Part shown: positions 1,244 through 42,100 of the stretch, piece after piece
Layout of the letters: every line of letters starts with the position of its first letter
Numbering within the stretch: the first letter of the stretch is position 1
Assembly (NCBI GenBank): GCA_963667425.1
Contig: OY763407.1
Coordinates: 1,178,001-1,242,000, forward strand
Reading direction: 5' to 3'
DNA length: 64,000 nucleotides
DNA from: G963667425 sp963667425 [NCBI: bacterium]
GTDB taxonomy: Bacteria; UBP6; UBA1177
Made by a program: the position numbers and the translations under genes
Notes under the pieces: generated by a model
What the model saw: only the letters and a program-made list of their open reading frames with translations
Told to the model about the DNA's origin: nothing
The model's database searches: none

Positions 1244-1317
1244 AAAAAAACAGGCACCTGAAACCAGGTACCTGCTTTGGGGGTGGGAGGGGAATCTGTG
1301 GAAATTGTCTAACCACG
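1244..1317 (-). ncRNA. Candidate C-rich small RNA with intrinsic terminator
   Basis: The gap 1069-1529 has no gene but contains a self-contained minus-strand transcription unit. It starts just after a promoter at 1323-1351. The 5' end carries a short GTGG/CCAC stem. A single-stranded C-rich stretch follows (1277-1295, reading CCCCTCCCACCCCC inside it). It closes with a 10-bp stem, arms CAGGTACCTG and CAGGTGCCTG with one G-U pair and a GTTT loop, followed by seven T residues. The predicted RNA is about 75 nt. C-rich unpaired regions of this type pair with Shine-Dalgarno sequences in known regulatory RNAs. No homologous family was recognised, so both the RNA and its role are inferred. Confidence 0.6.
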
Positions 1318-1322
1318 AGGAG

Positions 1323-1351
1323 AAAGTACTAAAAATTTTAAACTGAGTCAA
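1323..1351 (-). promoter_or_regulatory. Promoter of the candidate small RNA
   Basis: A minus-strand TTGACT -35 (1346-1351) and TACTTT -10 (1323-1328) with 17 bp between them sit directly upstream of the C-rich transcript. No open frame follows. Confidence 0.55.
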
Positions 1352-1496: not shown

Positions 1497-1529
1497 TACC
1501 CATGCGTTTGATGCAAACGCTTGCTTGGT

Positions 1530-1605
1530 GCCTTGTTAGCTCAGTCGGTAGAGCGGGTGGCTGTTAACCACTAGGTCGGCAGTTCGAGTCTGTCACAAGG
1601 CGCCA
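1530..1605 (+). tRNA. tRNA-Asn (anticodon GTT)
   Basis: A full cloverleaf can be drawn. The 7-bp acceptor stem is GCCTTGT/ACAAGGC. The D-arm is GCTC/GAGC with GTCGGTAG in the loop. The anticodon stem GGTGG/CCACT encloses the loop CTGTTAA, giving anticodon GTT. The T-arm contains TTCGAGT. The discriminator is G and CCA is encoded. A T-run follows at once and may terminate transcription. Confidence 0.95.
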
Positions 1606-1675
1606 TTTTTTTATGTCTAATTTTTCTCCACACAAATATTGTTTTTAAAAATGTTGTTTTAAAAACCTTTTTTTC

Positions 1676-1758: not shown

Positions 1759-3087
1759 ATGACTAAGAAGAAAGTTCTCATTATGGGTGCCGCTGGAAGA
1801 GATTTCCATAACTTCAACACTTATTACAGAGATAATGAAGAGTTTGAGGTCGTTGCTTTTACTGCTACACAAATTCCTGATATTGATGGCAGAAAATATC
1901 CTGCTGAACTTGCCGGTAGACTTTATCCGGAAGGGATTCCGATATTTGATGAATCAGAGCTTCCTGCACTTATAAAGAAATACGATGTTGAAGAAGTTGT
2001 TTTTGCATATAGTGATGTTCCTTATAAATATGTAATGAACAGAAGTGCTTTAGTTAACGCTTTGGGTGCAGATTTTACACTTATGGGCTATAATAGAACA
2101 AAAGTTAAATCAGTAAAACCTGTTATTTCAATATGTGCTATAAGAACCGGTTGCGGAAAATCACAGACAACCAGATTCGTTTATGATATTTTCAAGAAAA
2201 TGGGTAAAAAAGTTGTTGCAGTTCGTCATCCAATGCCTTACGGTGACCTTGCGGCACAGAAAGTTCAGAGATTTGCTGAAATAGCTGACCTTGAAAAACA
2301 TAAATGTACAATTGAGGAAATGGAAGAATATGAGCCACATATTGCTGCAGGAAATATCATTTATTCAGGTGTTGATTACGAAGCTATCGTAAGAACAGCA
2401 GAGAAGATAGATAATCCTGATGTTATTTTATGGGACGGTGGAAATAATGATATTCCTTTCTATGATTCAAATCTTAAAATTGTTGTTGTGGATCCATTAA
2501 GAGTCGGACATGAAGAAAATTACTTCCCTGGAGAAGCAAATTTAAGAATGGCAGATGTTGTTGTAATAAATAAAATGGACAGTGCAACACCTGAAGATAT
2601 AAAAACTCTTAAGGCAAACATTGCAAGACTTGCACCTAATGCAGTTGTTGTAGATGCAGATTCAGCTCTTACAGTAAATGGAGATATTAAGGGCAAGAGA
2701 GTTCTTGTTGTTGAAGATGGTCCAACACTTACACACGGTGAAATGAAGATTGGTGCCGCTTCTGTTGCTGCAGAAAGATTTGGTGTAAAAGAAATGGTAG
2801 ATCCAAGACCTTATGCAGTTGGTAAAATAGAATATACATACAAAAAATATCCTAATATTGGTAAAGGAATACTTCCTGCAATGGGATACAGCGATCAGCA
2901 GAAAAAAGACCTTGAAGAAACTATCAACAAAGTTGATGCTGACATCGTTTTAAGTGGAACACCTATAGACCTTGGCAGAATTGTAAAATCAAATAAGCCT
3001 ATTGTTACTGTAGGATATGAACTTAAACCTAGAGCAGGTTTTGAAGATATTATTGAGAAAGCAATAAAGGAAAAGCTTTTTAAATAG
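1759..3087 (+). CDS. Cyclic 2,3-diphosphoglycerate synthase-like GTPase (COG2403 type)
   Basis: The protein has 442 residues and a GGGAG ribosome site before the ATG. It has an N-terminal Rossmann-like segment (VLIMGAAGRDFHNF), then a P-loop-like RTGCGKSQTTR at about residue 131, followed by the conserved VRHPMPYGDL, ILWDGGNNDIPFY, VDPLRVGHE and VINKMD segments. This is the architecture of archaeal cyclic 2,3-diphosphoglycerate synthetase, which makes an intramolecular phosphoanhydride from 2,3-bisphosphoglycerate with ATP. The length matches the roughly 460-residue archaeal enzyme. Bacterial members are common but functionally untested, so the name records family only. The carbamate kinase gene 83 bp downstream runs the same way, but a terminator lies between them. 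A metabolic link is possible but unproven. Confidence 0.8.
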   Translation: MTKKKVLIMGAAGRDFHNFNTYYRDNEEFEVVAFTATQIPDIDGRKYPAELAGRLYPEGIPIFDESELPALIKKYDVEEVVFAYSDVPYKYVMNRSALVNALGADFTLMGYNRTKVKSVKPVISICAIRTGCGKSQTTRFVYDIFKKMGKKVVAVRHPMPYGDLAAQKVQRFAEIADLEKHKCTIEEMEEYEPHIAAGNIIYSGVDYEAIVRTAEKIDNPDVILWDGGNNDIPFYDSNLKIVVVDPLRVGHEENYFPGEANLRMADVVVINKMDSATPEDIKTLKANIARLAPNAVVVDADSALTVNGDIKGKRVLVVEDGPTLTHGEMKIGAASVAAERFGVKEMVDPRPYAVGKIEYTYKKYPNIGKGILPAMGYSDQQKKDLEETINKVDADIVLSGTPIDLGRIVKSNKPIVTVGYELKPRAGFEDIIEKAIKEKLFK

Positions 3088-20215: not shown

Positions 20216-21289
20216 CTACATTACTTCGATTTCGGCATCTATTGATCCGGCTTTTTTAAGTGCCTGTATTATTGAGATAAGGTCTCTGGGTGAGACTCCG
20301 AGTGCGTTTAATCCTTTCACGAGGTCGGATATTTTACCTCCTTCGATGAAGTTAAGATTTCTGTGTTCTTCTTCTATGTTGAAGTTTTTCTGTTCTCCTG
20401 CGACTGTGTTTCCGTTGCTTAATGGTCCAGGCTGAGAGACGAATGGAGAACTATCAACAGTCACGCTTAGATTTCCGTGCGAAACTGCTGTTTTTCTGAC
20501 TATTATGTCGCCGCCCATAACTACTGTTCCTGTTCTTTCGTTTAGAACTATGACTGCTTTTTTATCAGGCATTACTTCTATCTGTTCGAGGAATGCAGCC
20601 ATTTTTATGGGTGAGAATCCTTCTTTTACTTCAACTTCTATTTCCCTGCCGTCTACTGCTCTTGCAACGTTTGATGCGAAGTATCTGTTTACTGCGTCTG
20701 CAACTATAAACGATGTTGAAAAATCGGCTCTGTTCAGTACAAGGGTTATTTTTCCGTTTTTAACGAACTGATTTTCAATTCCTCTTTCTATTACTGCGCC
20801 TTCGGTTATTGTTCCGACTGTCGGATGATTTTTGGTTTTGTTTCCGATTGAGTATCCTCCGATACTGAGAACTCCCTGAGCTACTGCATATACTTTTCCG
20901 TCAGGAGCTTTTAATGGTGTCATAAGCAGTGTTCCGCCCTGAAGCGATTTTGCATCACCGAGCGAGCTTACCGTTATATCTATTTTAGATCCGCTTTCTG
21001 CAAATGGAGGAAGTGTTCCTGTTACCATTACTGCTGCCGCATTTTTTACTTTGAGTTTACTTACGTCAACCTTTATTCCCATTTCAGCAAGCATGTTGCC
21101 TATTGACTGAACTGTAAATATGGCTCCCTGCCCGTCTCCTGTTCCTGACAAACCGACAACTATTCCGTATCCGACTATCTGCTGGCTTCTCACCCCTTTT
21201 ATGTCGGCTAAATTTTTTATTCTGGTCCCGGCATACAGCGTTCCGCTGATAAGGAGTAATGTCAGCATCATTTTTATAATATTTTTCAT
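20216..21289 (-). CDS. flgI: Flagellar P-ring protein FlgI
   Basis: The protein has 357 residues from ATG 21289, where GGAGAAATAAG is the ribosome site. A longer in-frame extension to 21346 has no such site and would bury the signal peptide. The signal (MMLTLLLISGTLYAG) is followed by TRIKNLADIKGVRSQQIVGYGIVVGLSGTGDG, the FlgI hallmark. The C-terminus is LVKGLNALGVSPRDLISIIQALKKAGSIDAEIEVM. It forms the ring around the rod in the peptidoglycan layer. It is the last gene of the flg operon, and no flgJ follows. Confidence 0.96.
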   Translation of the reverse strand: MKNIIKMMLTLLLISGTLYAGTRIKNLADIKGVRSQQIVGYGIVVGLSGTGDGQGAIFTVQSIGNMLAEMGIKVDVSKLKVKNAAAVMVTGTLPPFAESGSKIDITVSSLGDAKSLQGGTLLMTPLKAPDGKVYAVAQGVLSIGGYSIGNKTKNHPTVGTITEGAVIERGIENQFVKNGKITLVLNRADFSTSFIVADAVNRYFASNVARAVDGREIEVEVKEGFSPIKMAAFLEQIEVMPDKKAVIVLNERTGTVVMGGDIIVRKTAVSHGNLSVTVDSSPFVSQPGPLSNGNTVAGEQKNFNIEEEHRNLNFIEGGKISDLVKGLNALGVSPRDLISIIQALKKAGSIDAEIEVM

Positions 21290-21311
21290 CTTATTTCTCC
21301 TAAAACAACCA

Positions 21312-22013
21312 TTAAAACGGCCAGACCCAGTCAAAGAATCTTGCAAATACTCCGGGCTGCTGTTTGTCGGAAACGATTCCTCTGCCTGAAAATTCTATCT
21401 GTAGTTCAGCTATTCTGTCACTTGGAACACTGTTATCCTGACTTATGTCGTCAGATCTTATTATCCCTGAAAGATAGAGATGTTGTTCCTCTCCGTTTAC
21501 CAGTGTCACTTTCTCCCCTTCTATGAAGAGGTTTCCGCTTGAATATACTTTTTTTATGACGACTGTTATTGTCGCTTTCATTGTTTCTTTACGATTGGTT
21601 GAGCCTTTGCCTGAAAAATTATTTTTACTTGTCGCTGAGACCATACTACCGGTATCAAGTCCGCTTCTTTTGGCAGCAAAATTTTCCCATACACCTAACC
21701 CATTGGGCATTGATGCACTTGTTGTTCCGCCTCTTTCAAGGTTTGTGTCAGCTGCCTTTTCTGCAATATCGCTTTCTGAAACCACAACCTGAATTATATC
21801 ATTGATTTTGTGTGCCCGTTTTTCGGAAAACATGCTTGCATTGCTGGATCTTTCTGTCCAGAGGCTTCCTTCGGATAGTCTTTCCTCTTTATGCTCGACT
21901 TCTATTTCGCTTACGTCTCTTTTTTTGGGATTATAGTGATCTATTCTTTTCACACATCCCTGAAATATGATCAGAGTGGTAAATATTGCTAAGAATATTT
22001 TTATTTTTCTCAT
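21312..22013 (-). CDS. flgH: Flagellar L-ring lipoprotein FlgH
   Basis: The protein has 233 residues. The signal ends in IFQGC (lipobox). The family region GSLWTERSSNASMFSEKRAHKINDIIQVVVSE leads to VKKVYSSGNLFIEGEKVTLVNGEEQHLYLSGIIRSDDI. FlgH forms the outer-membrane bushing for the flagellar rod, which shows a true outer membrane. It overlaps flgA by 4 bp. Confidence 0.96.
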   Translation of the reverse strand: MRKIKIFLAIFTTLIIFQGCVKRIDHYNPKKRDVSEIEVEHKEERLSEGSLWTERSSNASMFSEKRAHKINDIIQVVVSESDIAEKAADTNLERGGTTSASMPNGLGVWENFAAKRSGLDTGSMVSATSKNNFSGKGSTNRKETMKATITVVIKKVYSSGNLFIEGEKVTLVNGEEQHLYLSGIIRSDDISQDNSVPSDRIAELQIEFSGRGIVSDKQQPGVFARFFDWVWPF

Positions 22014-22651
22014 TTTCCACCTCCGACAGTCACTCTTCCGCTCCCCAGAACGGTTCCTCTGAGTATTTTTCCTGACTGGCTGTTCTTTATATTTATAGAA
22101 TCGTTCAGAGATCCGTTTCCCAGAGCGATTGCTTCAACGATTATACTTATTCCTTTGGCAGAATAGTTGGCAAGTATTATATCTCCTCTTTTTATCAGGA
22201 TTCTTTTTCTAAGCAGGTTTTTTGTAACTTTTTCCCCTTTGGAAACTGCTACTCTGGTTTCTTTTCCTTCTATTGAAAAGATGTATCTTCTGTTGTTGCC
22301 GCCATCTATTTTTTCTCTTGTTACAATTACCATATCCTGAGTAAGAGGAGTTCCTTTCGGATATGAATCTGTAAAGCTCAGGACATCTGCCTTTACTGTA
22401 AGATTAAAGGTTACAACTTTCACACCTTCATCTGTTTCGGCAAAAATTTTCTTGAATCCTGAAAAACAGAGTTGTCTGCCTGAAAAATCCGCACTTTTTA
22501 TAACTGTTTCGGGTACAGAAAGGTTTTCTATCTCAAAGTTTTTCACTTCACTGCATGACTCTTCGATTTCTGCCTGTATAAGTCTTGTGAAATCAGAGCT
22601 TAAAAGCGAGTATGAAATAAAAAATGTTATTAAGATGATTACCTTTTTCAT
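22010..22651 (-). CDS. flgA: P-ring assembly chaperone FlgA
   Basis: The protein has 213 residues with a signal peptide. The C-terminal half is an SAF-type domain (GTPLTQDMVIVTREKIDGG, ISKGEKVTKNLLRKRILIKRGD and GKILRGTVLGSGRVTVG are the matching stretches). FlgA is a periplasmic chaperone for FlgI polymerisation. Its position between flgG and flgH fits the usual order in deltaproteobacteria and epsilonproteobacteria. Confidence 0.9.
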   Translation of the reverse strand: MKKVIILITFFISYSLLSSDFTRLIQAEIEESCSEVKNFEIENLSVPETVIKSADFSGRQLCFSGFKKIFAETDEGVKVVTFNLTVKADVLSFTDSYPKGTPLTQDMVIVTREKIDGGNNRRYIFSIEGKETRVAVSKGEKVTKNLLRKRILIKRGDIILANYSAKGISIIVEAIALGNGSLNDSINIKNSQSGKILRGTVLGSGRVTVGGGK

Positions 22652-22655
22652 TGCA

Positions 22656-23447
22656 CTATCCCTGTCTTAAGTTTGTAGCTGTCTGAAGCATCGAATCACT
22701 TGTCTTTACGGCTTTTGAATTTATTTCGTATGCTCTCTGACCTTCTATCATGTTTACCATTTCGGTTACCATATCAACATTTGAACCTTCGATAAATCCC
22801 TGAAGAAGTTCACCTGTTCCATTTTCTCCGGGATTTGAAATTATAGGATCACCTGATGCGGCACTCTGTTCAAAAAGATTTTTACCAAGAGCTTTCAATC
22901 CACCCGGATTTATAAATGTCGCCACTTGTATAACACCTATTTCTGTTGTGTCGGTCTGCCCTGCCTGTTTGACAGAAACTGTTCCATCTTCACCGATAAG
23001 AAGACTTACTGCATCTGGAGGAATTGTTATTTCAGGTTCTATCGGATAGCCGTTTGCAGTAACAATGCGCCCTTCGTTGTCTGTCTTGAACGAACCGTCT
23101 CTTGTGTAGGCGACTGTTCCGTCAGGTCTTGTTATCTGAAAGAATCCATTGCCCTGAATTGCTATATCAAGTGAATTTTCAGTGTTTCGAAGAGAACCCT
23201 GAGCAAATTCTTTTGTCGTATCTGAAGTTTTTACTCCAAGACCGTACTGTGTCGAAACAGGACTCGGCGTTCCGGCTGTTGTTGAAAGTCCGGGCGCTTT
23301 ATCTGTCTGATAAAGAAGATCTTCAAAATTGGCTCTGTTCCGTTTAAAGCCGGTAGTGTTGACATTTGCAAGGTTGTTGGATACAACCGCCATTTTCTGC
23401 TGCTGAGCACTCATGCCTGTTGCAGCGATATCCAATGCTTTAAACAT
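22656..23447 (-). CDS. flgG: Flagellar distal rod protein FlgG
   Basis: The protein has 263 residues, normal for FlgG. The N-terminal rod motif MSAQQQKMAVVSNNLANVNTTGFKR and the C-terminal SNVDMVTEMVNMIEGQRAYEINSKAVKTSDSML are typical. It is exported by the flagellar type III system and has no signal peptide. It follows flgF by 12 bp. Confidence 0.96.
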   Translation of the reverse strand: MFKALDIAATGMSAQQQKMAVVSNNLANVNTTGFKRNRANFEDLLYQTDKAPGLSTTAGTPSPVSTQYGLGVKTSDTTKEFAQGSLRNTENSLDIAIQGNGFFQITRPDGTVAYTRDGSFKTDNEGRIVTANGYPIEPEITIPPDAVSLLIGEDGTVSVKQAGQTDTTEIGVIQVATFINPGGLKALGKNLFEQSAASGDPIISNPGENGTGELLQGFIEGSNVDMVTEMVNMIEGQRAYEINSKAVKTSDSMLQTATNLRQG

Positions 23448-23459
23448 ATTTTACCTCCA

Positions 23460-24218
23460 TCACATTACACCTACTTTATTAACAGCCTTCTCATCAAGTG
23501 TCTGATAGGCTTTTATGGCTTTAGAGGCTGTTTCATAATGACGCTGAAGCTTTATCATTTCTGTCATTTCAGCCACGATATTAACATTGGAGCTTTCAAG
23601 GTATCCCTGATGGATTCTTGAATTCTGTGCAGTTGACTCAACACCTGAATTCTCATCCAATGTATATCTTGTTCCGTATTTATTGGTAAGCCATCTTGTG
23701 TCGTTTACATCAAAGAGAGCTATTCGCCCAACTTCATCTTCACCCTGAACTATCATTCCGTCTTCTCTGATGTTTACTCCTGCATTTCTGTCAACGATTA
23801 TCGGTTCCTGATTTTCATTTAAAAGATAGGCTCCATCAGCATCTGTAATATAACCTTCATTGTCCACAGTAAATTCACCGCTTCGCTGAAGAAAAAGTTC
23901 TTCCCCTTTTTTTACTTTAAAAAATCCGCTTCCTTCTATTGCAAGGTCAAGAGGATTATCTGTCTGTCTGAATGAACCTTGTGAATGATCATTATATGTA
24001 TCAGAGAGTTCTGTAAATGATTTATCCTGCTGAGTGTAGTATTCTTCCATTTTTTCAGGAATATCACTCTGTTTATACTTATGAATATATTCGGAAAAAA
24101 CCGATTTCTCTTTCTTAAAACCTGAAGTTGAAGCGTTTGCAAGATTGTTGGAGACTACTTCAAGATTTTTCTCTATTGCAACATTACCGGATAAGGCAAC
24201 ATAAATTCCATTACTCAT
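23460..24218 (-). CDS. flgF: Flagellar proximal rod protein FlgF
   Basis: The protein has 252 residues of the FlgF/FlgG type: NLEVVSNNLANASTSGFKKEKSVF at the N-terminus and LESSNVNIVAEMTEMIKLQRHYETASKAIKAY at the C-terminus. It sits just before flgG and is called FlgF by order and divergence. Its first 8 bases overlap the upstream unknown gene. Confidence 0.92.
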   Translation of the reverse strand: MSNGIYVALSGNVAIEKNLEVVSNNLANASTSGFKKEKSVFSEYIHKYKQSDIPEKMEEYYTQQDKSFTELSDTYNDHSQGSFRQTDNPLDLAIEGSGFFKVKKGEELFLQRSGEFTVDNEGYITDADGAYLLNENQEPIIVDRNAGVNIREDGMIVQGEDEVGRIALFDVNDTRWLTNKYGTRYTLDENSGVESTAQNSRIHQGYLESSNVNIVAEMTEMIKLQRHYETASKAIKAYQTLDEKAVNKVGVM

Positions 24219-24618
24219 TTACAGCCCTCCTCTTTTTCATTTTCTGAAAAATATGAAATTCACTTTCAGACATCCCTGAAAAATTTCCTTTTTCTGTCGG
24301 ATATTCATAAACTTTTGCTTTTACTGAAGCATTTATCTCTTCGGTTTCCCTTTTTATTTTTTCTTCTTCAATCATCTGCATAAGATTTCTGATATCGTCC
24401 TCTTTATCCTGAAGTATTGTAAGCATTTCGGTAGCCATTTTATTGATTTTAAGAACTGTTTCTTTCCCTGGAGCGTTTTTCTGAATCTTTTCAAGTTCCT
24501 GTTCCAGAGTTTCGACCTTGTATTTCATGAGAGAATATTCCTTTTTGTAATCACGAAATATTATGAGCAGTGTTATAACGATAATCACCCATAAAACTGC
24601 TGCAAAAACAAAAATCAT
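24211..24618 (-). CDS. Unknown membrane-anchored coiled-coil protein in the flg operon
   Basis: The protein has 135 residues and I do not recognise a family. It has one N-terminal transmembrane helix (residues about 2-21), then a charged helical segment with heptad character (YKVETLEQELEKIQKN, LQDKEDDIRNLMQMIEEEKIKRETEEI) and a short tail. It lies between a lipoprotein gene and flgF, overlapping flgF by 8 bp. An accessory role in flagellar assembly or a membrane tether is plausible from context only. Confidence 0.6.
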   Translation of the reverse strand: MIFVFAAVLWVIIVITLLIIFRDYKKEYSLMKYKVETLEQELEKIQKNAPGKETVLKINKMATEMLTILQDKEDDIRNLMQMIEEEKIKRETEEINASVKAKVYEYPTEKGNFSGMSESEFHIFQKMKKRRAVNE

Positions 24619-37943: not shown

Positions 37944-38753
37944 CTATTCTCCGGTAAATCCACTTGTCATTTTCTCCCAGAAACTGGAAGAATTTCCCGT
38001 TGAAAGAAAATCTTTTGAGTCAATTCTGTCTACAAGAGCTCTTATACATGCAGCAACCGATGATGAAGGAAATTCCTTTATAAACGGTTTCTGGGTCATA
38101 ATTGCTCTGTTAATTATTTTATCGTCGTATACAAATCCGGCAAAATCAAGTGAAACGTTGAGAAAGTGTCCTGTAACCTGACCTATTCTCTGATAAATTC
38201 CTTTTGCCTGTTTAACATTGTCTACTCTGTTTATGAGAATTTTAAATCGTTCTATTTTATACTGCTGGCTCAGCACTTTCATTATTGCATAACCATCTGT
38301 AAGTGATGTCGGTTCAGGTGTAAGGACTATAAATACATCCTGAGCTACGGAATTAAAATAGAGTACATTATCAGAAATCCCGGCTCCTGTATCCAGAAAT
38401 ATATAATCAAAATCGGAAAATGTTTTTATTGCATTTATAAAACCGTATGCTTCTTCTTCACCAAGGTGAACCAGACTTTGAATACCACTGCTTGCAGGAA
38501 GTATATTAAGCCCTTCAGGTCCTTTGATAATTATATCTTCCAGATTTTTTTCACCTGAAAAAAGATGCCTGAGATTAAATTCCGGAGCAAGCCCCAAAAC
38601 TATATCGACATTTGCCAGTCCCATATCGGTGTCAATAAGGAGAACTTTTTTTCCACGGGAAGCAAGCTCTATAGCCGTATTGACTATCATGTTTGTTTTG
38701 CCGACTCCACCTTTGCCGGAGGTAAAACTTATTACTCTCAGTTTTTCGTTCAT
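37944..38753 (-). CDS. flhG: Flagellar number regulator FlhG (FleN/YlxH, MinD family)
   Basis: The protein has 269 residues. Deviant Walker A SGKGGVGKTNMIVN at about residues 12-25, LIDTDMGLANVDIVLGL and FLDTGAGIS mark a MinD/ParA ATPase. Its position between flhF and fliA identifies it as FlhG, which restrains FlhF to set flagellar number and place. It ends 3 bp before fliA. Confidence 0.93.
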   Translation of the reverse strand: MNEKLRVISFTSGKGGVGKTNMIVNTAIELASRGKKVLLIDTDMGLANVDIVLGLAPEFNLRHLFSGEKNLEDIIIKGPEGLNILPASSGIQSLVHLGEEEAYGFINAIKTFSDFDYIFLDTGAGISDNVLYFNSVAQDVFIVLTPEPTSLTDGYAIMKVLSQQYKIERFKILINRVDNVKQAKGIYQRIGQVTGHFLNVSLDFAGFVYDDKIINRAIMTQKPFIKEFPSSSVAACIRALVDRIDSKDFLSTGNSSSFWEKMTSGFTGE

Positions 38754-38764
38754 TACATTTTCCT

Positions 38765-40024
38765 TTAGCAGATTTCATTTTTAAAAATCATATCCGAAAG
38801 CTGAGATGAAGACTTCAATCGAACTATATCTTCAGGAATCTTTTGTCCGTTGGTAACAAAACATGGAGAAACAGATGTTTTACCGGCGAGAGATCCCATC
38901 AATCCGTTTCTTATCGCCTCATCTTCTTTCGTATATACGACAAGCATTTCTCCAAGGACAGTTTCAAAACGGTTTATAACCGAAAGAGCCTGTTCATACT
39001 CTGTTGCAACCGGAATATGAAGTATCGGACAAGTATATACGGCAGAGGCAATCTTTTCAAGAAATTGCATTGATGACTGCGATTTATGACTTACACCGGC
39101 GGTATCAATAAGAACTGTTTTATAATTTATTCTAATATCTTCTATGTTGGCAAAATATTCATCTGCTGTTCTGAAATGAAAAAATGGAAGATTAAGAATA
39201 TCTGTAAACTTCTTTATTTGAGAACCTGCATCAGCTCTCATAAAATCGAGAGAAATAATTGCAATATCATTTCTATTACGTTCAAGTATGAGTTTTGCTG
39301 CAATTTTAATTAATGTTGTTGTCTTTCCAACACCGGTAGGACCAACGAAAAGATATATTCCCCCCTCTTTATCCATTATGTTGAAGACATCTGTAACTTC
39401 TATTTTAGATGAAAAAAGATCTGTCATAAAAAGTTCCAGTTCACTGTCGGTCATAAATGAATTATCTGGAAGTTTTGTCTCTTTAAGAATTTTTTCCATT
39501 GCTGTTTCATCAATACCGGCTTTTATTCCTTTTTTTATGTACGGCATAAGATGAAAAGCATGTTCCGATAATTTAGAAACGCTGTTTTTAAGTAAAGCTT
39601 CAAGAGATTCTCTAAGCATGGCGAGTTCATTTAAGAATTTTGATTCCTGCTGTCTTGAACGAATCTGCTGTTCTTTCAACTGCTCCTTTAGGGAAGCAAA
39701 TTCTATACTGTTATTTAAATCTGTAAAGGAGTCTACCTCTCTTGGCACTTCAGCAACAGTTGGAGAAATTCCTTTAAAAGAAGACTCCTGTAATCCTCTG
39801 CTGTCAGTTCTGCCGTATGTGGCAGTTTTATTGGTGTAGCCATAGGCACCACGAGATTTAAATGGCGTTCCCCCTTCTTCAAGATCGTAATCTCTCGCCG
39901 CAGTAACAATAACTTTTCCTCCAATATTTTCTGTAGAGACGATAACAGCATCTTTTCCAAAATCTTTTTTTACTCCTATCATTGCTTCTGCAACGTTCCT
40001 TCCTTCAAATCTTTTAATTTTCAT
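38765..40024 (-). CDS. flhF: Flagellar SRP-like GTPase FlhF
   Basis: The protein has 419 residues. An N-terminal basic domain (MKIKRFEGRNVAEAMIGVKKDFG) is followed by a variable region, then an NG GTPase domain: LFVGPTGVGKTTTLIKIAAKL (G1), DFMRADAGSQIKKF and LIDTAGVSHKSQ (G3). FlhF marks the pole or site of flagellar assembly and is regulated by FlhG, encoded next. RBS GGGGGATAACAG. Confidence 0.94.
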   Translation of the reverse strand: MKIKRFEGRNVAEAMIGVKKDFGKDAVIVSTENIGGKVIVTAARDYDLEEGGTPFKSRGAYGYTNKTATYGRTDSRGLQESSFKGISPTVAEVPREVDSFTDLNNSIEFASLKEQLKEQQIRSRQQESKFLNELAMLRESLEALLKNSVSKLSEHAFHLMPYIKKGIKAGIDETAMEKILKETKLPDNSFMTDSELELFMTDLFSSKIEVTDVFNIMDKEGGIYLFVGPTGVGKTTTLIKIAAKLILERNRNDIAIISLDFMRADAGSQIKKFTDILNLPFFHFRTADEYFANIEDIRINYKTVLIDTAGVSHKSQSSMQFLEKIASAVYTCPILHIPVATEYEQALSVINRFETVLGEMLVVYTKEDEAIRNGLMGSLAGKTSVSPCFVTNGQKIPEDIVRLKSSSQLSDMIFKNEIC

Positions 40025-40027
40025 CTG

Positions 40028-42064
40028 TTATCCCCCTACCACACCAAGTGTCTGCAATCTTACTGAAGAAACTTCAGCAGTGGAAATAACTGCAACACCC
40101 GGCATACTGCGTTCTATCATTTTTTTTACAAACCTTCTTGTATCAGGATTGGTAAGAAGTACCGGCATTGAACCTGTCATAGCAAAATGCTCAGCATTTT
40201 TATCAATTGAATCCATAAACTTTTTCATAAGCATTGGACTCACCACTCCACTTTCTTTATATGCTTCCTTTATTTCTATTTCGAGTCTTGGATCTATTGT
40301 CAGAACATATAAATTTCCATCATCACTTTTTAATCTTGAAGATATCTGAGCTCCAAGCTGTTGTCTTACAAATTCTGTAAGATATTCAGCATCTTTTGTA
40401 ACAGGAGCATAGTCAGCAAGAGTTTCAAGTATTGTTCTCATATCTCTTATACTGATCCCTTCCTTGAGTATATTTTTAAGCACTTTAAGAACTGTTCCCA
40501 TTGGAAGCAGGTTTGGTATAAGCTCTTCAACCACTTTCGGATATTTTTCCTTAAAGAGATCAAGCAGCCTCTGAAGTTCATCTCTTCCAAGTATGTCATG
40601 AGCATGGGACTTAAGAATCTCTGTTATATGAGTGGCAACAACAGTTGCAGGATCTACTACAACAAATCCCAGACCTGTTGCTGAATCTCTATCAGATTCG
40701 CTTATCCATTTTGCAGGAAGTCCGAATGCAGGCTCTTTTGTGTTTGTACCATCAAAAGGAACTGCTTCGCCAGTTGAATTTATAAGGAGATACTGATCAT
40801 GATACACCATACCTCTGCCAGCTTCAACATCTCTTATTTTAAAGGCATATTCCTGCGCATTAAGATCCAAATTATCCCGTATATGAATTGAAGGAACAAT
40901 TATTCCCATATCGGAAGCGAACTGCTTTCTTATAGAGACAATTTTTGCAAGAAGCTCTCCGCCCTGGCTTGAATCAACAACCGGAATTACAGCATAACCT
41001 ACTTCAAGTTGAAGAAGATCCATTCCAAGCATGGACTCAACTTCTTCTTTTTCGTTTAAAGGTTTACTGTTATCAGAAGTAGATTCTTTTTTGTCTTTTT
41101 CATCTTCATCAAGATCAAAACCATCGCCCTCTCTTCCAATATAAAAGAAAAGTGCGGCAAATATCCAGAATATTATTAAAGGAAAACCTGGAATAAAACC
41201 TAAAAGGAAAAGTACTGTTCCAACAACTTTTAAAGCTCTGTTATATCTGAACAACTGACCTATAACTTCTTCCCCCATTCCCCCTTCAGAACCTGCACGA
41301 GTGACAATAACACCGGCAGCAGTAGAAATAAGAAGTGATGGAATCTGAGAAGAAAGACCATCTCCGACTGTGAGAATAGTATAGGTTGCCGCTGCATCTG
41401 AAGCACTCATTCCATGTTGAACAACGCCAATTATGAAACCTCCGACAATATTTATAACGGTAATAATTATGCCGGCTATTGCATCTCCTTTTACAAACTT
41501 TGAAGCACCGTCCATTGCTCCGTAAAAATCAGCTTCTCTTGCAACTTCTTTTCTTTTCTTTCTTGCCTCAGCTTCAGTTATAAGACCGCTATTTAAATCT
41601 GCATCAACGCTCATCTGTTTTCCAGGCATAGCATCAAGAGTAAATCTTGCACTTACTTCAGCAACTCTGCCTGAACCTTTAGTGATAACCATAAAATTTA
41701 TTAAAACCAGAATAACAAAAACTATAATACCTACAACATAGTTGCCGCCGACAACAAACTGACCAAAACTTTGAATAAGTTTTCCTGCTGCGGAAGGTCC
41801 TTCATTGCCATTTAATAAAATAAGCCTTGTCGAAGCTATATTTAAAGAAAGTCTGAAAAGCGTAGCCATAAGAAGTACTGAAGGAAAACTTGAAAAATCA
41901 AGCGGTTTTTGGAGATATACTCCAACCATAAGTATCAAAACACCTGATGTAATACTCACAACAAGCAGAAAATCCAGCATAAACGGAGGAATTGGAAGTA
42001 TCATTGCGACGATAATCCCTAAAAGGGCTGCAACTATTACTAAGTCGGTTCTTCCTTTAAACAT
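40028..42064 (-). CDS. flhA: Flagellar export gate protein FlhA
   Basis: The protein has 678 residues from ATG 42064 (GGAACGGGT in front). An upstream TTG gives six more residues but lacks a site. It has eight hydrophobic segments in the N-terminal half, including the FHIPEP-family region GNYVVGIIVFVILVLINFMVITKGSGRVAEVSARFTLDAMPGKQMSVDADLN. A large cytoplasmic domain forms the C-terminal ring. FlhA is the proton-driven export gate of the flagellar type III system. flhB is not upstream here. Confidence 0.96.
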   Translation of the reverse strand: MFKGRTDLVIVAALLGIIVAMILPIPPFMLDFLLVVSITSGVLILMVGVYLQKPLDFSSFPSVLLMATLFRLSLNIASTRLILLNGNEGPSAAGKLIQSFGQFVVGGNYVVGIIVFVILVLINFMVITKGSGRVAEVSARFTLDAMPGKQMSVDADLNSGLITEAEARKKRKEVAREADFYGAMDGASKFVKGDAIAGIIITVINIVGGFIIGVVQHGMSASDAAATYTILTVGDGLSSQIPSLLISTAAGVIVTRAGSEGGMGEEVIGQLFRYNRALKVVGTVLFLLGFIPGFPLIIFWIFAALFFYIGREGDGFDLDEDEKDKKESTSDNSKPLNEKEEVESMLGMDLLQLEVGYAVIPVVDSSQGGELLAKIVSIRKQFASDMGIIVPSIHIRDNLDLNAQEYAFKIRDVEAGRGMVYHDQYLLINSTGEAVPFDGTNTKEPAFGLPAKWISESDRDSATGLGFVVVDPATVVATHITEILKSHAHDILGRDELQRLLDLFKEKYPKVVEELIPNLLPMGTVLKVLKNILKEGISIRDMRTILETLADYAPVTKDAEYLTEFVRQQLGAQISSRLKSDDGNLYVLTIDPRLEIEIKEAYKESGVVSPMLMKKFMDSIDKNAEHFAMTGSMPVLLTNPDTRRFVKKMIERSMPGVAVISTAEVSSVRLQTLGVVGG

Positions 42065-42100
42065 ACCCGTTCCAACCAAAAATTTTTCTGCTATTACTAT

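What the first reader, a model, noticed from the sequence alone, without database searches (positions are those of the whole stretch)
1244..1351. Candidate C-rich small RNA with its own promoter and terminator
A minus-strand unit with TTGACT-17-TACTTT, about 75 transcribed bases and a 10-bp stem plus T7 terminator fits a short non-coding RNA. No open frame fits inside. The unpaired middle is almost pure C with short T breaks, complementary to GGAGG/GGGG ribosome sites used throughout this window. C-rich sRNAs that block ribosome sites are established in other bacteria (for example UCCC-motif RNAs). Promoter, stem and C-tract are seen directly, and the regulatory role is inferred.
Basis: partly seen in the sequence, partly recalled or inferred. 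Interest (0 to 1): 0.7.

Follow-up and report, generated by a model that had tools for sequence, protein, structure and literature searches.

The report
Conserved C-rich small RNA gene
A stretch of about 75 bases next to a transfer-RNA gene very probably encodes a small RNA with no Rfam match, whose cytosine-rich middle is identical in the related copies compared, and which may switch messages off by covering their ribosome landing sites.

Summary
Window 1351-1244 (-) has a weak promoter, about 75 bases without a conserved frame, a C-rich tract and an intrinsic terminator. It is conserved: a search with this segment alone found copies in related genomes, and an exact 15-mer of the tract occurs once in each of 8 of 28 genomes of the phylum, reversed control 0. 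Six copies plus the window share CTTGAC, GTGG, an identical 16-base ATTCCCCTCCCACCCC and a compensating terminator stem. A model built without the window finds it at E 2.2e-6. A divergent tRNA-Asn lies 144-180 bp away in the window and 7 homologous loci; downstream genes differ, so it is a stand-alone gene. No Rfam match; Hfq in 0 of 28 genomes. Best mechanism: the C-tract pairs with G-rich ribosome sites, as in RoxS/RsaE or sX13. This is inferred: target tests gave no clear order-specific signal and no conserved target. A second, probably independent C-tract family appeared in another phylum (21 of 136 genomes). Verdict: real new sRNA family of a known functional kind; function plausible, not shown.

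The parts
1323..1351 (-). sigma-70-like promoter: TTGACT (1351-1346), 17-base spacer, TACTTT (1328-1323)
   Evidence: sequence; CTTGAC invariant in 7 of 7 aligned copies, of the -10 region only GTA invariant; too weak for the scan
1298..1316 (-). 5' hairpin GUGG/CCAC, 4 bp in the window; RNA start probably near 1316-1321 (inferred from the -10 position)
   Evidence: folds: 5-7 bp in 5 of the 6 relatives folded, not the predicted fold in G024; GTGG invariant in 7 of 7
1279..1295 (-). mostly unpaired C-rich tract AUUCCCCUCCCACCCC(C), the presumed pairing region; contains CCUCC, complementary to GGAGG
   Evidence: 16 of 16 columns identical in 7 copies, against 45-64% mean pairwise identity in promoter spacer, -10 to start, hairpin, and linker plus terminator; mean P(unpaired) 0.72 (G024) to 1.00, window 0.84
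1244..1275 (-). intrinsic terminator: GC-rich hairpin followed by seven T
   Evidence: 4 of 8 stem pairs with changes on both sides across 7 copies
1530..1605 (+). tRNA-Asn(GTT), divergent neighbour kept beside the sRNA gene
   Evidence: same arrangement in 7 of 8 homologous loci, the eighth (G023) broken by a contig end
1..1080 (-). downstream exo/endonuclease/phosphatase-family gene with its own promoter-like site at 1141-1113; context, not part of the sRNA unit
   Evidence: Pfam PF03372; TTGACA-17-TAAAAT, 11 of 12, best of the first 20 kb

Best explanation
Window 1351-1244 (-) is a free-standing gene for a trans-acting small RNA of about 75 nucleotides. Shown by sequence comparison: -35 box, hairpin base GTGG, constant 16-base C-rich tract, terminator, no conserved reading frame, one copy per genome in part of one phylum, beside tRNA-Asn wherever the contig reaches. 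Inferred: the RNA is made; hairpin and terminator guard its ends and leave the C-tract open; the C-tract pairs with G-rich Shine-Dalgarno regions of several mRNAs, without Hfq, and stops ribosome binding. Constancy of the tract would then reflect many targets at once. Probability of a real sRNA gene about 0.93; of the ribosome-site mechanism about 0.6.
For: Homologs found with window 1351-1236 alone: 7 of 25 genomes match at E <= 0.1, best 9.3e-4 in G025 and G026; 77% and 75% identity over 54-55 bases in G022 and G019; G002 matches by the terminator arm only. Exact 15-mer once each in 8 of 28 genomes of the phylum, reversed control 0 of 28. Model R1: E 9.7e-22 to 2.4e-13 as best hit in those 8 (six of them were in the model), next best genome 7.8e-4, among 290. 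Leave-one-out model R2 finds window 1352-1245 (-) at 42.6 bits, E 2.2e-6; next match 23 bits. Tract 100% identical in 7 copies. Structure: 94.5% of cells paired, 0 of 500 shuffles as high, slid versions 35-58%. tRNA-Asn divergent in window and 7 of 8 homologs; downstream genes differ. A GTG at the hairpin lies in different frames to the tract in different copies. Hfq in 0 of 28 genomes, control rang in 5 of 14. Parallels, passages seen: RoxS pairs by C-rich regions with the ppnKB ribosome site, no major effect of hfq (PMC4409812); sX13 repression needs its C-rich and the targets' G-rich motifs, Hfq dispensable (PMC3771888).
Against: No transcript data. Weak -10 box; 4-bp hairpin in the window and no such predicted hairpin in G024. 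Without the window the both-sided pair changes are less striking (3 pairs, 29 of 500 shuffles as high). Pairing with start regions: for 51 window genes the top-2 mean is matched by 6% of 150 shuffled tracts and the overall mean by 20%; for 465 genes of G019-G021, 21-70% of shuffles are as strong, by measure. k-mers complementary to the tract are denser before starts than inside genes, but so are those of the reversed tract. Lipoprotein genes are not significantly preferred (p 0.074, while their ribosome sites are stronger anyway, p 0.0145). The best window duplex is flhF (dG -22.0), yet that protein matched 0 of 28 relatives at E <= 1e-20 (no positive control). In sX13, joint mutation of C- and G-motifs did not restore regulation, so even there direct pairing was not fully proven.
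Confidence: 0.6

Rival explanations
1. The C-tract is a landing site for a protein or for another RNA (sponge or decoy), not for ribosome-binding sites; one partner would keep a constant 16-base single-stranded motif.
For: Tract identical in 7 copies and longer than a Shine-Dalgarno sequence needs; no order-specific pairing signal at start codons.
Against: The tract contains the complement of GGAGG, and C-rich sRNAs studied elsewhere act on ribosome sites (PMC4409812, PMC3771888, passages). I searched for no partner.
Confidence: 0.2
2. It is a 5' leader or attenuator of the downstream gene rather than a free RNA.
For: In the window and in G023-G026 the next gene lies on the same strand (G026 read by eye).
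Against: The downstream genes differ between these, and in G019-G022 the next gene is on the opposite strand; the window's downstream gene has its own strong promoter-like site.
Confidence: 0.05
3. The conserved object is DNA: a G-rich strand forming a quadruplex or a protein-binding site near tRNA-Asn.
For: The + strand reads GGGGGTGGGAGGGG.
Against: The terminator stem keeps pairing through changes on both sides and is followed by a T-run, and the -35 box is kept.
Confidence: 0.05
4. Chance: a C-rich stretch that happens to lie before a terminator.
For: Weak promoter; 19 terminator-like sites against 11.3 expected in 20 kb, so a terminator alone means little.
Against: Conservation in 8 genomes and leave-one-out detection.
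Confidence: 0.02

Closest known systems
RsaE / RoxS (Firmicutes C-rich sRNAs)
   Same: C-rich regions offered to G-rich ribosome sites; no major effect of hfq on RoxS (PMC4409812, passages)
   Different: Several separate C-rich regions (CRR1-4) against one continuous 16-base tract here; other phylum; the window has no Rfam match at gathering score
sX13 (Xanthomonas)
   Same: C-rich motifs and G-rich target motifs needed for repression, Hfq dispensable (PMC3771888, passages)
   Different: 115 nt with C motifs in the loops of three stem-loops, at the polA locus; here about 75 nt, a linear tract, beside tRNA-Asn
SmelA075/SmelA099 (Rhizobiales) and RS0680a (Rhodobacter); CcsR recalled as the same group
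   Same: CCUCCUCCC anti-Shine-Dalgarno motif (PMC3927594, section 2.7 read)
   Different: Motif in loops of repeated hairpins, several copies per genome; here single-stranded and single copy
mmgR / suhB family RF00519
   Same: CCUCCC-containing stretch before a terminator; cmscan 16.1 bits, E 0.79
   Different: Far below the gathering score of 41
Second C-tract family found here (G040 clade)
   Same: TTGACA promoter, constant C-rich tract, terminator, once per genome; model R2 scores 7 of 7 of its loci weakly, E 0.001-0.039
   Different: Tract CCCCTATCCCCCTCCCTCCTCCCC, no conserved 5' hairpin seen, no tRNA in the flanks of 15 loci; neighbours PilZ-like and MnmA-like genes in L208 (named by eye)

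Membership tests
Free-standing intrinsically terminated bacterial sRNA | own promoter and terminator around a short non-coding unit | tested here: met
   -10 box weak; frame not kept
Free-standing intrinsically terminated bacterial sRNA | conserved independently of flanking coding genes | tested here: met
Free-standing intrinsically terminated bacterial sRNA | transcript detected | not testable with these tools
   no RNA data
C-rich Shine-Dalgarno-blocking sRNAs (functional class of RsaE/RoxS, sX13) | unpaired C-rich motif complementary to Shine-Dalgarno sequences | tested here: met
   mean P(unpaired) 0.72-1.00 in 7 copies; CCUCC inside the tract
C-rich Shine-Dalgarno-blocking sRNAs (functional class of RsaE/RoxS, sX13) | identified targets paired at the ribosome site | tested here: inconclusive
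   no clear order-specific enrichment; no conserved target
C-rich Shine-Dalgarno-blocking sRNAs (functional class of RsaE/RoxS, sX13) | works without Hfq | tested here: inconclusive
   Hfq (PF17209) in 0 of 28 genomes, control rang in 5 of 14; function itself not tested
RF00519 suhB/mmgR | cmscan score at or above the gathering score of 41 | tested here: not met
   16.1 bits
Any Rfam 15 family | match at gathering score | tested here: not met
   window, (only the tRNA); L116, L118, L120-L123, (only tRNA)

The most novel reading that the evidence does not exclude
Bacteria of unrelated phyla have independently evolved a minimal kind of regulator: a 60-75-base RNA that is little more than a promoter-driven, invariant, linear C-tract with a terminator, acting without Hfq as a general brake on messages with G-rich ribosome sites. 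The window's family and the G040-clade family would be two such inventions.
Probability: 0.25. Interest if true: 0.75.

Novelty: new member of a known kind. Interest (0 to 1): 0.52.

Why it matters
With the second family it offers two natural, minimal C-tract RNAs for asking how an RNA with a long generic anti-ribosome-site sequence picks its targets. If the tract serves many messages at once, its constancy is expected and testable.

Tried and rejected
Lipoprotein genes as target class: suggested by three lipoprotein-like and one secreted-protein start among 30 of the 33 GGGAGGGG-N(1-14)-ATG places of G019-G022 (the other three places had no locus); not borne out in the larger gene set (516 genes, 64 lipoprotein-like, p 0.074; motif tests p 0.14 or higher). 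Flagellar genes as targets: the two best duplexes of the window are flhF and a 135-aa gene without a Pfam match beside flagellar rod genes; the flhF protein matched none of 28 relatives at E <= 1e-20, so it cannot be the target that keeps the tract constant there. GGGAGGGG-N(1-14)-ATG occurs 170 times in 8 genomes against 71 for the reversed pattern, as ordinary ribosome sites would give; one place in each of the 8 genomes is the antisense of the sRNA itself. Viral contigs: 38 stretches hold the 15-mer; in the 50 bases before and 60 after, read by eye, none showed the hairpin-tract-terminator layout. Plasmid collection: 40 records match, and the 20 listed match only the tRNA part of the query. 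An ATTAC-N5-GTTA-like string upstream of the -35 box in G019-G022 was seen by eye and not tested. Weak model hits beyond the 8 genomes and G040 were taken as noise; I looked at five of them or fewer.

Full report
What is there. On the minus strand, between tRNA-Asn (1530-1605, +) and a gene of the exo/endonuclease/phosphatase family (1080-1, -), lies a compact unit: TTGACT (1351-1346), a 17-base spacer, TACTTT (1328-1323), a short hairpin GUGG...CCAC (1316-1298), a C-rich tract AUUCCCCUCCCACCCCC (1295-1279) and a terminator hairpin with seven T (1275-1244). The RNA from 1322 to 1243 folds at -26.3 kcal/mol, z -4.28, with the tract open. The tract is the most C-rich 16-mer of the window. The terminator stem (14 pairs) is the second longest of 19 terminator-like sites in the first 20 kb; the promoter is too weak for that scan. 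Rfam gives only the tRNA at gathering score; the permissive scan gave only sub-threshold matches, among them mmgR/suhB at 16.1 bits.

More than chance. No whole genome is held for the window. Through the protein encoded at 1759-3087 I reached related genomes; the nearest encode it at 82-83% identity. Most are unnamed; G001 and G002 are the bins 'bacterium isolate SW_4_4' and 'RGIG2292' from goat duodenum. A search of 25 genomes of the order with window 1351-1236 matched 7 at E <= 0.1: the tract region in G025, G026, G022, G019, G023 and G024, and only the terminator arm in G002; a second match in G019 (L115) looked like coding sequence and I took it as chance. The exact 15-mer TTCCCCTCCCACCCC is present in 8 of the 28 genomes held of the phylum (G019-G026), once each; reversed control 0. 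All eight line up with the window. G023 is split over two contig ends that disagree and G025 nearly equals G026, so I left both out of the core alignment. In its seven rows the 16 tract columns are 100% identical, against mean pairwise identities of 55% in the promoter spacer, 45% from -10 to the start, 64% in the 5' hairpin and 57% in linker plus terminator; the -35 hexamer has 90%. The two-helix structure keeps 94.5% of cells paired (0 of 500 shuffles; slid controls 35-58%) with both-sided changes in 4 terminator pairs; the 5' helix shows none, and the aligner shifts it in the window. Without the window: 97.4% (6 of 500) and 3 both-sided pairs (29 of 500). Model R1 finds the eight genomes at E 9.7e-22 to 2.4e-13 among 290 relatives, six of them by construction; 26 genomes had a hit at E <= 0.5, the best outside the eight being 7.8e-4. 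Model R2, built without the window, finds window 1352-1245 (-) at 42.6 bits, E 2.2e-6; the next match has 23 bits, E 0.021.

A stand-alone gene. tRNA-Asn(GTT) lies divergently upstream in the window and in 7 of 8 homologous loci; in the eighth, G023, one contig ends too early and the other fragment also carries tRNA-Asn. From coordinates the tRNA start is 144 to 180 bases from the -35 end. Downstream the context changes: a lipoprotein-like gene in the window; an ATPase of ABC type (named by eye) on the same strand in G023-G025 by blastp and in G026 by eye; a small CxxC protein gene on the opposite strand in G019, G020 and G022; another opposite-strand gene in G021. A GTG at the hairpin lies in different frames to the tract in different copies. 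This speaks against a leader of one gene and against a conserved peptide. The tRNA-Asn region of G001 shows no such tract in the 650 bases read, and the G002-like genomes and G027-G030 lack the 15-mer and any strong model hit (completeness of these genomes is not told), so the gene seems restricted to part of the phylum.

How it probably works. The tract contains CCUCC, core of the 16S anti-Shine-Dalgarno sequence (established knowledge; the 16S of this organism was not examined), and is predicted mostly open in seven copies (mean 0.72 in G024, where part pairs with GUGG, to 1.00). C-rich RNAs acting on ribosome sites are known: RoxS/RsaE (PMC4409812, passages), sX13 (PMC3771888, passages), the CCUCCUCCC-loop RNAs of Rhizobiales (PMC3927594, passages and section 2.7). 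RoxS and sX13 showed no major need of Hfq, and Hfq was found in 0 of 28 genomes of this phylum with a working control. Pairing of the tract with G-rich ribosome sites of several mRNAs is therefore the best reading, at about 0.6.

What speaks against certainty. I called 516 genes in the window and parts of G019, G020 and G021. Their start regions do not pair clearly better with the true tract than with 150 shuffled ones: window 6% (top two), 7% (top five), 20% (mean) of shuffles as strong; the other 465 genes 21-70% by measure. Complementary 6- to 8-mers are about 2.5 to 5.6 times denser before starts than inside genes, and those of the reversed tract about 3.2 to 5.5 times (rough comparison): general G-richness of ribosome sites, not a specific order. 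Lipoprotein genes are not significantly preferred. The best window duplexes are flhF (start 40024) and a 135-aa gene at 24618 beside flagellar rod genes, but the flhF protein matched none of 28 relatives at E <= 1e-20, eight of which carry the sRNA. A conserved target is missing, and a protein or RNA partner remains possible (about 0.2).

Beyond the finding. The model's best hit outside the phylum-wide family, in G040 (E 7.8e-4), led to a second conserved C-tract RNA. Of 81 relatives of G040, 24 matched at E <= 0.01, 21 of them at 2.2e-9 or better. Of 15 loci fetched, 13 passed my filter and were aligned: TTGACA, TATTAT, then CCCCTATCCCCCTCCCTCCTCCCC constant in 13 of 13, then varying terminators. 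A 23-mer of it occurs in 22 of 136 genomes of that phylum, in 21 without mismatch and once each, reversed control 0. No Rfam match in five loci, no tRNA in the flanks of 15 loci. Model R2 scores 7 of 7 of its loci tested weakly (E 0.001-0.039), which a shared C-tract and terminator can explain; I think convergence likelier than descent. Its phylum is unnamed to me; Aquificota is only a guess from genome size. The passages seen of the Aquificales ncRNA paper (PMC4227106) mention no C-rich RNA ('c-rich' occurs 0 times in its main text). I found neither family in print in searches, of which I saw listings, and which cover open-licence papers only.

Verdict.

Noticed in passing
L208, L336-L350 (G040 and relatives), e.g. 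L208 around 1510-1610 (+): A second C-tract sRNA family: TTGACA/TATTAT promoter, constant CCCCTATCCCCCTCCCTCCTCCCC, terminator; a 23-mer of it is exact and single in 21 of 136 genomes of its phylum; no Rfam match in five loci.
   Followed up: partly
L178, L180, L182-L187, L189 (nine G002-like genomes), upstream of tRNA-Asn: In 9 G002-like genomes the same tRNA-Asn interval carries, on the other strand, a conserved element with CCCC(C)T-n-AGGTTATGTTGTAATA and the terminator CCCCCGG(C/A)AACGGGGGATTTTTTTT, behind two different upstream sequences; perhaps another C-rich or 3'UTR-derived RNA.
   Followed up: partly
window 1141-1113 (-): TTGACA-17-TAAAAT, the best promoter-like match of the first 20 kb (11 of 12), placed to serve the gene downstream of the sRNA.
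   Followed up: no
window 20216-24218 and 37944-42079 (-): Flagellar genes by Pfam (FlgI, FlgH, FlgA-type, two rod proteins, FlhA, an SRP54-type FlhF), although the FlhF protein matched none of the 28 genomes of the related phylum at E <= 1e-20; motility may be special to this lineage.
   Followed up: partly
L226 and L207 (G023 contigs C124 and C111): The sRNA copy of G023 sits at two contig ends whose letters disagree, and the C111 copy joins a G019-like upstream part to a G024-like downstream part; looks like an assembly fault at the C-tract.
   Followed up: partly
L227 (G026:C100), near 1525 (-): CACCCTCCCACCCCCC shortly before a GC-rich terminator, E 0.0173 with model R1; possibly a C-rich 3' UTR.
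   Followed up: no
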